A stretch of DNA of 5,107 nucleotides, taken from contig JAQICW010000320.1 in assembly GCA_027858355.1 (NCBI GenBank), positions 1 to 5,107 of the forward strand. The letters run 5' to 3'. Position numbers and translations under genes: made by a program. This DNA is from Desulfobacula sp. (GTDB lineage Bacteria > Desulfobacterota > Desulfobacteria > Desulfobacterales > Desulfobacteraceae). Below, piece after piece: positions 1 through 5,107 of the stretch (its first letter is position 1; each line of letters starts with the position of its first letter). Below the pieces are notes generated by a model, which did no database searches, was not told where the DNA came from, and saw nothing but the letters and a program-made list of their open reading frames with translations.

Positions 1-122
1 AAGTAACTTCTTCTTCTTCTAAAGTAACTTCTTCTTTCTCTAAAGTAACTTCTTCTTTCTCTATAGTTACTTCTTCTTCTAAAGTAGCTTCTTTTTCCTC
101 TAAAGTGACTTCTTCTTTCTCT
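1..122. repeat. 21-bp tandem repeat (coding heptad repeat)
   Basis: Six consecutive units are visible. On the plus strand they read approximately AAAGTAACTTCTTC plus a T/C-rich tail. Units at 21-41 and 42-62 are identical. The unit at 63-80 is shortened to 18 bp, and those at 81-101 and 102-122 carry a few substitutions. The unit at 1-20 is cut by the window edge. All unit lengths are multiples of three, so the frame of the minus-strand gene is kept and copy number changes would only lengthen or shorten the Glu-rich stretch. The sense strand is almost pure purine. Confidence 0.9.
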
Positions 123-175
123 AAGGTTTCAGTATTCATTTTTTGATTTTTGTTTTCTTCAGCAATGTCATTCAT
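1..175 (-). CDS. N-terminal part of an acidic repeat protein, probably 30S ribosomal protein S1 (partial)
   Basis: This leftward reading frame begins at ATG 175-173 and leaves the window still open after 58 codons. A Shine-Dalgarno sequence AGGGAG (191-186) lies 10 nt before the ATG, which favours this start over a second in-frame ATG at 139. The visible protein begins MNDIAEENKNQ and from about residue 17 is a run of roughly seven-residue units of the type T-L-E-K-E-E-V. It is extremely rich in Glu, with no hydrophobic segment or signal peptide. No functional domain is inside the window. The identity rests on context: rpsA commonly follows cmk in proteobacteria, and S1 proteins often have an acidic N-terminus before the first S1 domain. 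S1 binds mRNA on the 30S subunit and helps initiation. Another acidic protein cannot be excluded. The reading frame is solid; the S1 name is an inference. Confidence 0.6.
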   Translation of the reverse strand, partial: MNDIAEENKNQKMNTETLEKEEVTLEEKEATLEEEVTIEKEEVTLEKEEVTLEEEEVT

Positions 176-246
176 TAATATTAATCTCCCTAAACGTATT
201 TTATACTCCTCCACAGAAACAAAATTATGGTCAAGTACAATTTGCC

Positions 247-4115: not shown

Positions 4116-4382
4116 CTATTTTTCTTTTTTCAGTTCATCAAGTTCTTTTTCAAGTTTTTCAATTTTGGTTTTATCATCCTGGGTTGCTGGTGCTTCAACA
4201 CCATCATCTTTTTTCCATGAATCTTTCAGTTCGTCAAATCCAAGATAAAGAGCAAGTCCACCGCCCAGAAGAAGAACAGGTGGGATGCATCCTGCTAAAA
4301 GGATTAAAAACTGATTAAACCAGACAGCTATTCCCACAACACCAAGAAGAACCGCAATAGCTCCACCAATTAACGTTTTCAT
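4116..4382 (-). CDS. Small two-helix membrane protein with coiled-coil tail
   Basis: An 88-residue protein with a strong ribosome-binding site, AGGAGG (4395-4390) seven nt before ATG 4382-4380. Residues about 4-21 and 26-49 form two hydrophobic, glycine-rich helices; the second contains P34-P35 and a GGG at 40-42. The short polar link (around W21-F22-N23-Q24) suggests a helical hairpin in the inner membrane. The tail (50-88) is charged, with an Ala/Pro/Thr linker and heptad spacing I74, L77, L81, L84 indicating a short coiled coil, presumably cytoplasmic. There is no cleavable signal sequence. I recognise no enzymatic motif. The helix-pair pattern (LG..G...W near the end of helix 1, G..P..LL..G near helix 2) recalls the small magnetosome protein MamI, but from memory only, and does not establish that role. 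It stands alone, convergent with the RNase H gene, and ends in TAG followed by a terminator. Confidence 0.88.
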   Translation of the reverse strand: MKTLIGGAIAVLLGVVGIAVWFNQFLILLAGCIPPVLLLGGGLALYLGFDELKDSWKKDDGVEAPATQDDKTKIEKLEKELDELKKEK

Positions 4383-4556: not shown

Positions 4557-4591
4557 ATTATTTACAGAAAAATCCTTATGGGGACGAATTA

Positions 4592-5107
4592 ATGAAATTA
4601 TTTCAAAAGCTTAAAGACCTTATTATAAATTTCAGGCTTAAGCTTCGCAGAATGATCACCTGCATGCTGGGCAACACCTATGATTACTTTTTATGTTTTT
4701 ACCCGAGCCACTCAGGATATTTTATCCAAAAGCTGATTAAACGATTGATCAATAAGCTTAATTTTGATGATCACAATATAGAAAAAATAAAATCCATTCA
4801 TTAGGACAGCATTGTTGTTTATGCCAGTAAAAATAAAAGAATTCTAGATTTTTTATATTATCATACCAAGCTTAAAGGCCTTGACCTGCCTTATCCCCAG
4901 ATTGGGTTTGATTTCAGGTTCTTTTTTCTTTTACCTGTCAAACGTCTGTTACAGATCCTTCTTTGTCACCTGGATTATTTTTTCCACCATTTTAGTTTTA
5001 AAGATCCTTATACAACAGGGTATGCCACAAAAGAATTGTTAAACGGCAGATCTGGTTTTGTCTGCCTTATTGAAGAAGAAGATTTTTATAAACGATTTAT
5101 CAAATCA
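4592..5107 (+). pseudogene. PlsB-like glycerol-3-phosphate acyltransferase, interrupted by in-frame TAG and cut by window end
   Basis: The frame opens at ATG 4592 after GGGGACG and runs 70 codons to TAG (4802-4804). It then continues in the same frame, with no further stop, for 101 codons to the window edge. Both halves read as one protein. The first half is a basic amphipathic N-terminus (MKLFQKLKDL ... FYPSHSGYF). The second (DSIVVYASKNKRILDFLYYH ... PQIGFDFRFFFLLPVKRLL ... DYFFHHFSF ... GFVCLIEEEDFYKRF) follows the layout of the PlsB acyltransferase domain around motif I. PlsB acylates glycerol-3-phosphate at the inner membrane, the first step of phospholipid synthesis. The place of the motif-I histidine (HxxxxD) appears to hold N81, with D86 kept, so this belongs to a divergent subfamily. 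No internal start with a ribosome-binding site follows the TAG. The gene is either a nonsense-mutated pseudogene or intact through amber recoding. Family call moderate; interruption certain as sequenced. Confidence 0.65.
4802..4804 (+). other. In-frame amber codon in the PlsB-like gene
   Basis: TAG follows CAT (His70) and precedes GAC (Asp72), without a frame change. One base change from CAG, AAG or GAG would create it. If read through, it may be a pyrrolysine or suppressor position. I see no clear stem-loop just downstream. TAG is also the apparent true stop of the small membrane protein gene at 4116-4118, so amber is not wholly reassigned here. Confidence 0.9.

What the first reader, a model, noticed from the sequence alone, without database searches (positions are those of the whole stretch)
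4592..5107. In-frame amber codon inside an otherwise intact PlsB-like gene: recoding or fresh pseudogene
Seventy codons before and 101 codons after TAG 4802-4804 form one continuous family-like protein in the same frame, with no other stop or frameshift. The gene keeps a plausible promoter and ribosome-binding site. Some sulfate-reducing Desulfobacterota are known to carry the pyrrolysine (Pyl) system and read TAG as an amino acid. A membrane acyltransferase would be an unusual host for Pyl, so a recent nonsense mutation or a sequencing error remains the simpler reading.
Basis: partly seen in the sequence, partly recalled or inferred. Interest (0 to 1): 0.75.

Follow-up and report, generated by a model that had tools for sequence, protein, structure and literature searches.

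The report
Amber codon in Desulfobacula plsB gene
A marine sulfate-reducing bacterium carries one stop codon inside what looks like its only gene for starting membrane-lipid synthesis, and because close relatives have the machinery to read this stop codon as the rare amino acid pyrrolysine, the gene may still work, although a sequencing error or a fresh mutation is not excluded.

Summary
In detail: TAG 4802-4804 is codon 71 of the first 172 codons of a PlsB-like glycerol-3-phosphate acyltransferase, cut by the contig end; both sides look coding and match intact 881-aa orthologues. The contig is Desulfobacula (95.4-97.5% DNA identity to three MAGs). In 22 of 22 loci that span the codon it is sense, Lys in the three closest, so the TAG is private and derived. 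New: (1) two of those three MAGs carry pyrrolysine genes (tRNA-Pyl, pylB, mtbB/mttB with in-frame TAG; pylS found in one); the third shows none. (2) PlsX was found in 0 of 8 relatives, PlsY in 0 of 24, a PlsB-type match in 24 of 24: PlsB looks like the sole such enzyme, so a null allele is hard to accept. (3) Residue 71 is a variable loop position. Against recoding: TAG is an ordinary terminator in these genomes and on this contig; in 1.58 Mb from 14 Pyl-bearing relatives I recognised no other TAG-interrupted gene besides methyltransferases (one short hit unresolved; recall 67%); the window's own genome is not held. Best reading: a neutral Lys-to-TAG change tolerated through pyrrolysine insertion (0.42), ahead of sequence error (0.28), true nonsense or truncation (0.2) and other read-through (0.08).

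The parts
4592..5107 (+). First 172 codons of a plsB-like gene (glycerol-3-phosphate acyltransferase), cut by the contig end, with one in-frame TAG
   Evidence: Translation; 22 loci aligned over residues 1-172; intact orthologues of 881 aa; orthologue P0009 matches PlsB profiles over residues 179-865, below their cut-offs, and Pfam PF01553 and PF19277
4802..4804 (+). The in-frame TAG, codon 71; sense in 22 of 22 spanning loci, Lys in the three closest
   Evidence: residue 71 variable in 120 homologues; loop 68-73 between helix 60-67 and strand 74-79 in the predicted model of P0009
4592..4801 (+). 70 codons before the TAG
4805..5107 (+). 101 codons after the TAG, coding-like; only start-type codon in frame is TTG 149 at 5036-5038
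4580..4584 (+). Ribosome-binding core GGGGA (AAGGA in L001, L002, L003)
4116..4382 (-). Conserved 88-aa ORF whose terminator is TAG (4116-4118); L001 and L003 end it with TAA, L002 with TAG: TAG acts as a terminator on this contig

Best explanation
A Lys codon of plsB mutated to TAG in one Desulfobacula lineage. The change is tolerated because the cell's tRNA-Pyl(CUA), kept for methylamine methyltransferases, competes with the release factor and inserts pyrrolysine, a lysine derivative, at a variable loop position. Full-length PlsB is then made, probably at reduced level. Shown: the TAG, its private and derived nature, coding continuity after it to the contig end, Pyl genes in close relatives, PlsB as the only recognised enzyme for this step in relatives. 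Inferred: that this organism has the Pyl genes, that suppression suffices for growth, that the rest of the gene is intact.
For: Pyl genes in two of the three closest MAGs. G002: pylS C-terminal domain, two tRNA-Pyl, two pylB, two pylSn, mtbB with TAG and four mttB with one in-frame TAG, one of them partial. G001: tRNA-Pyl, mtbB with TAG and a pylB cut by the contig end, two mttB with TAG. tRNA-Pyl in 14 of 24 relatives, pylS over cut-off in 9 of 24. PlsX 0 of 8, PlsY 0 of 8 and 0 of 24, PlsB-type match in 24 of 24, one in each of G001-G004. Variable site with Lys commonest, in a predicted loop. +4 base is G, as at the TAGs of the two mttB and one mtbB looked at. No other lesion in 172 codons. 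Precedents: Thg1 in archaea and a predicted Thermincola case (passages of PMC3639795, and PMC8211752).
Against: The window's own genome is not held, and G003, as close as the others, shows no tRNA-Pyl, no pylS or pylB over cut-off, no pylSn and no TAG-type mttB over cut-off. TAG ends 15.5% of 1087 ORFs in nine Pyl+ genomes against 15.4% of 280 in G014. Among 14 TAG hits in 1.58 Mb of Pyl+ DNA none besides four methyltransferases is recognisably an interrupted gene. The TAG is not conserved in any of 22 loci. Two private changes sit in the ribosome-binding core. In Acetohalobium UAG is reported to mean Pyl only on trimethylamine (PMC8211752 passage), which would suit an indispensable gene badly.
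Confidence: 0.42

Rival explanations
1. Sequence or assembly error, or a chimeric or minor-strain contig end: the main allele has a sense codon at 4802.
For: The site is one base change from the AAG of L002 and L003 and lies 305 bases from the contig end. No second assembly with this TAG could be shown: the 70-aa search gave only the window's own entry (2 member sequences, 1 contig) and a 118-aa partial relative with Lys. The 250-base bin 4751-5000 holds 10 private changes, the second highest.
Against: Private changes: 23 nonsynonymous and 39 synonymous codons in the window, 15/35 in L001, 24/29 in L003, with similar transition:transversion counts (43:23, 34:17, 37:20); adjacent private pairs 5, 7 and 4; the other long ORFs of the window are open.
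Confidence: 0.28
2. A real nonsense mutation that ends PlsB at residue 70, either a doomed or dispensable allele, or one bypassed by starting translation inside the gene.
For: Two private changes in the ribosome-binding core fit relaxed selection. The PlsB-profile match of the orthologue begins only at residue 179, so a product from TTG 149 would keep the catalytic part. Nonsense alleles occur in the clade: a TAA-interrupted oxidoreductase-like ORF, named by eye, in G002 (L175). Eight of 24 relatives have a second PlsB-profile match, one of them full length (G022), so a spare copy in this organism is not excluded.
Against: No PlsX in 8 of 8 and no PlsY in 24 of 24 relatives, one PlsB match in each of G001-G004. 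No second lesion in 172 codons. In the window the only start-type codon after the TAG is TTG 149, in the middle of the predicted N-terminal domain and without a clear ribosome-binding site.
Confidence: 0.2
3. Read-through of the UAG by a near-cognate tRNA or by another suppressor tRNA, without pyrrolysine.
For: In-frame stops in bacterial genes under purifying selection are reported to be widespread (PMC7918605, abstract and outline only).
Against: No special structure follows the codon; where Pyl genes exist they are a sufficient cause. Other suppressor tRNAs were not searched for.
Confidence: 0.08

Closest known systems
Pyl in archaeal tRNA-His guanylyltransferase (Thg1) by neutral evolution (Heinemann 2009; known here through passages of PMC3639795 and PMC8211752, the paper itself is not held)
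   Same: A non-methyltransferase gene with a lineage-private in-frame TAG in an organism group that decodes TAG as Pyl
   Different: There an archaeal protein; here a bacterial, apparently indispensable membrane-lipid enzyme, with no protein evidence and Pyl genes shown only in relatives
Predicted drift-type TAG gene of Thermincola potens (PMC3639795, passages)
   Same: A bacterial gene predicted to have gained a tolerated TAG by chance
   Different: There two nearly identical copies in one genome; here a single copy on one contig
MtbB/MttB methylamine methyltransferases with Pyl
   Same: In-frame TAG with coding on both sides; present in the same clade
   Different: There the TAG is conserved and Pyl is catalytic; here it is private and at a variable site
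PlsB glycerol-3-phosphate acyltransferase (TIGR03703; PDB 9vuq; human GPAT1 8e4y)
   Same: Orthologue P0009 matches the PlsB profile over residues 179-865, 9vuq_E by sequence (E 1.7e-68) and GPAT1 by fold (E 8.1e-25)
   Different: Below the curated PlsB cut-off (432.5 against 618.5 bits); the first ~178 residues, where the TAG lies, are outside the profile match

Membership tests
Pyl-containing protein, neutral-drift type (Thg1-like) | In-frame TAG with family-like coding on both sides | tested here: met
Pyl-containing protein, neutral-drift type (Thg1-like) | Sense codon in relatives at a tolerant position | tested here: met
   22 of 22 spanning loci sense; column 20th most variable of 172
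Pyl-containing protein, neutral-drift type (Thg1-like) | Pyl decoding genes in the same genome | not testable with these tools
   No genome held; present in two of the three closest MAGs, not seen in the third
Pyl-containing protein, neutral-drift type (Thg1-like) | Pyl residue seen in the protein | not testable with these tools
   Needs proteomics
Functional Pyl enzyme (MtbB/MttB type) | TAG conserved among orthologues | tested here: not met
   0 of 22 spanning loci
Wholesale reassignment of TAG | TAG no longer used as terminator | tested here: not met
   TAG ends 15.5% of 1087 ORFs in nine Pyl+ relatives; terminator of the 88-aa ORF
PlsB (TIGR03703 equivalog) | Score over the curated cut-off | tested here: not met
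   Orthologue P0009 432.5 against 618.5 bits; 0 of 24 relatives over cut-off
PlsB/GPAT superfamily | HX4D motif and GPAT C-terminal domain | tested here: inconclusive
   Met in orthologues: H386 and D391 invariant in 50 sequences, PF01553 and PF19277 over cut-off in P0009. The window ends before these parts; its own pieces match no family
Pseudogene | Further lesions in the reading frame | tested here: not met
   None in the 172 codons held; the remaining ~709 codons lie off the contig
Pseudogene | Function dispensable or backed up | tested here: inconclusive
   In relatives PlsX 0 of 8, PlsY 0 of 24, one PlsB match in G001-G004 but two in 8 of 24; own genome not held

The most novel reading that the evidence does not exclude
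In this Desulfobacula lineage the only enzyme that starts phospholipid synthesis carries pyrrolysine, so membrane synthesis and growth depend on Pyl decoding: an amino acid kept for methylamine metabolism has become essential through one neutral mutation in a housekeeping gene, in a bacterium whose relatives still end about one gene in six with TAG.
Probability: 0.25. Interest if true: 0.75.

Novelty: new member of a known kind. Interest (0 to 1): 0.42.

Why it matters
If real, it would be a bacterial counterpart of the archaeal Thg1 case: evidence that a natural amber-decoding system lets sense codons drift to TAG even in indispensable genes, a first step by which a dual-use codon can move towards reassignment. 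It would also make testable how much UAG is read as Pyl outside methylamine growth. The one search for pyrrolysine together with PlsB listed two papers, both on synthetic cell systems by title.

Tried and rejected
Rejected: wholesale TAG reassignment (TAG ends 15.5% of 1087 ORFs in nine Pyl+ genomes; TAA/TAG exchange at the 88-aa ORF). Rejected: a known cis signal (no Rfam match at E <= 1 in the window; fold z-score 0.19 for 100 bases after the TAG). Rejected: a conserved functional Pyl site (0 of 22 loci). Not supported: a generally error-rich contig.

Led nowhere: the same TAG in a second assembly. An excess of TAG interruptions in Pyl+ relatives: of 14 TAG hits, 4 are mtbB/mttB, 9 are by eye two neighbouring genes in one frame, and 1 (G004, L144, 56 and 53 codons either side) is unresolved; none was checked by its own homology search. 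Recall on simulated interruptions was 369 of 551 (67%), and 182 of 551 (33%) where no start codon follows within 12 codons. The 1.58 Mb are 14 genomes counted as Pyl+ because tRNA-Pyl was found, very uneven (650,814 bases from G002, several under 15,000); L022 was left out because it lies on the same contig as L187. Backup stops within 10 codons follow TAG more often in the Pyl+ set than in G014 (0.51 against 0.25), but base composition was not controlled and I draw nothing from it. A loose TAG list for G004 was noise. One search found none of its terms in that paper.

Limits: MAG completeness is not told, so absences are weak, G003's too. pylC, pylD and other amber-suppressor tRNAs were not searched.

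Full report
What is there. The window is a 5107-base piece, seemingly a whole contig, of a Desulfobacula species. It holds ORFs that look like cmk, an aminotransferase, a DUF1343 protein and an RNase H (names by eye and recall; ORFs), a conserved 88-aa ORF, and at its right end the first 172 codons of a PlsB-like acyltransferase. Codon 71 is TAG at 4802-4804. Coding scores are strong on both sides (17.7 and 17.6 over 50 codons).

Relatives. A scan of genome contigs returned 24 loci. Three are 95.4-97.5% identical to the window in DNA over their aligned stretches: L001, L002 (Candidatus Desulfobacula maris) and L003. L023 and L024 start after codon 71; in the other 22 it is sense: 13 Lys, 5 Pro, 2 Gln, 1 Asn, 1 Thr, with AAA, AAG and AAG in the three closest. 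In the 120 listed homologues (of 371 found) residue 71 is K in 49, P in 34, T in 12, Q in 9 and others in 16, and the column is the 20th most variable of 172. A database of predicted proteins is biased against stops, so only the loci speak to how often a TAG occurs. In a predicted model of the nearest intact protein (mean pLDDT 75.9) residue 71 lies in a loop between helix 60-67 and strand 74-79. The TAG is thus a private, derived change at a tolerant site.

Can this clade read TAG? The PylS C-terminal domain exceeds its cut-off in 9 of 24 relatives, and one more (G007) is cut by a contig end. tRNA-Pyl is found in 14 of 24. G002 has pylS, two tRNA-Pyl genes, two pylB and two pylSn, mtbB with an in-frame TAG and four mttB with one TAG, one of them partial. 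G001 has tRNA-Pyl beside an mtbB with TAG and a pylB cut by the contig end and two TAG-type mttB; its pylS and pylSn were not found, which a broken assembly could explain. G003 shows no tRNA-Pyl, no pylS or pylB over cut-off, no pylSn, and no mttB over cut-off (one 37-bit fragment there holds a TAG). Pyl decoding is therefore probably ancestral in the group, but the window's own status is unknown. PMC8318568 (passages, and part 1 of 2 of section 9) reports Pyl genes and a TAG-containing trimethylamine methyltransferase in Desulfobacula-related bacteria.

Is a broken plsB acceptable? A PlsB-profile match is present in 24 of 24 relatives, none over the curated cut-off; 16 of 24 have one match, among them G001-G004, and 8 of 24 have two, in G022 both full length. 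PlsX was found in 0 of 8; PlsY in 0 of 8 by TIGR00023 and 0 of 24 by PF02660; these three control searches each rang in 8 of 14 known genomes. PlsB thus looks like the only enzyme for the first acylation in the close relatives. That losing it would be lethal is an inference. An internal start is possible in principle, since the PlsB-profile match of P0009 begins at residue 179, but in the window only TTG 149 is available, inside the predicted N-terminal domain.

Is it an error? Private changes in the window (23 nonsynonymous and 39 synonymous codons; codon 71 is not among them because L001 and L003 differ there) resemble those of L001 (15/35) and L003 (24/29), as do transitions and transversions. 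The 250-base bin 4751-5000, which holds the TAG, has 10 private changes, second to 11 in 2251-2500. A single wrong base cannot be excluded by such tests. The ribosome-binding core has two private changes with little predicted loss of pairing: mild support for decay or for noise.

Does the clade show other cases? In 1.58 Mb from 14 genomes with tRNA-Pyl the coding scan gave 14 TAG hits: 4 mtbB/mttB, 9 pairs of neighbouring genes by eye, 1 short unresolved hit in G004. Recall on simulated interruptions was 67%, 33% where no start codon follows within 12 codons. A TAA-interrupted oxidoreductase-like ORF in G002 (L175) shows that other nonsense alleles occur. TAG ends 15.5% of 1087 ORFs in nine Pyl+ genomes and 15.4% of 280 in G014, where no Pyl gene was found. 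On this contig a conserved ORF ends in TAG where L001 and L003 have TAA. TAG remains a terminator, so decoding would work by competition with the release factor, as a review passage describes (PMC8211752). Of chance nonsense changes 29-36% would be TAG, so the kind of stop favours Pyl only about threefold.

Judgement. A neutral Lys-to-TAG change tolerated by Pyl insertion is the best account (0.42); rivals are sequence error (0.28), real nonsense with loss or truncation (0.2) and other read-through (0.08). The kind is known: Thg1 in archaea and a predicted Thermincola case (PMC3639795 passages; the Thg1 paper is not held). What would be new is a bacterial, apparently indispensable gene.

Noticed in passing
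G002: C24 (L085) and C16 (L077); also G012: G002 carries two tRNA-Pyl genes that differ (100% and 88% identity to the probe), two pylB and two pylSn, but only one pylS C-terminal gene was found (C377). G012 also has two tRNA-Pyl and two pylSn. Two Pyl systems may coexist in one bacterium.
   Followed up: partly
window 4116-4118 (-): The terminator of the conserved 88-aa ORF is TAG here and in L002, L015, L017, but TAA in L001, L003, L008, L011, L013, L022; L019 runs on to a later TAA (10 relatives read).
   Followed up: yes
window 2-214 (-): The start of an ORF upstream of cmk has an acidic repeat-like stretch (EEVTLEKEE) that varies between relatives.
   Followed up: no
L175 (G002:C41): An oxidoreductase-like ORF, named by eye, is interrupted by an in-frame TAA.
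   Followed up: no
G004:C103:133611-133709: A 33-residue pylSn-like fragment lies just before pylB, with a TAG in the frame; no full pylSn was found in G004.
   Followed up: no
orthologue P0009, residues about 74-165: By eye the N-terminal part of this PlsB looks like a degenerate copy of the acyltransferase domain (a strand, then a helix, as around the HX4D motif); the TAG lies just before its first strand.
   Followed up: no
Pyl+ relatives against G014: A second in-frame stop within 10 codons follows TAG in 0.51 of Pyl+ ORFs and 0.25 in G014 (TAA 0.56 and 0.46, TGA 0.55 and 0.41); base composition not controlled.
   Followed up: no
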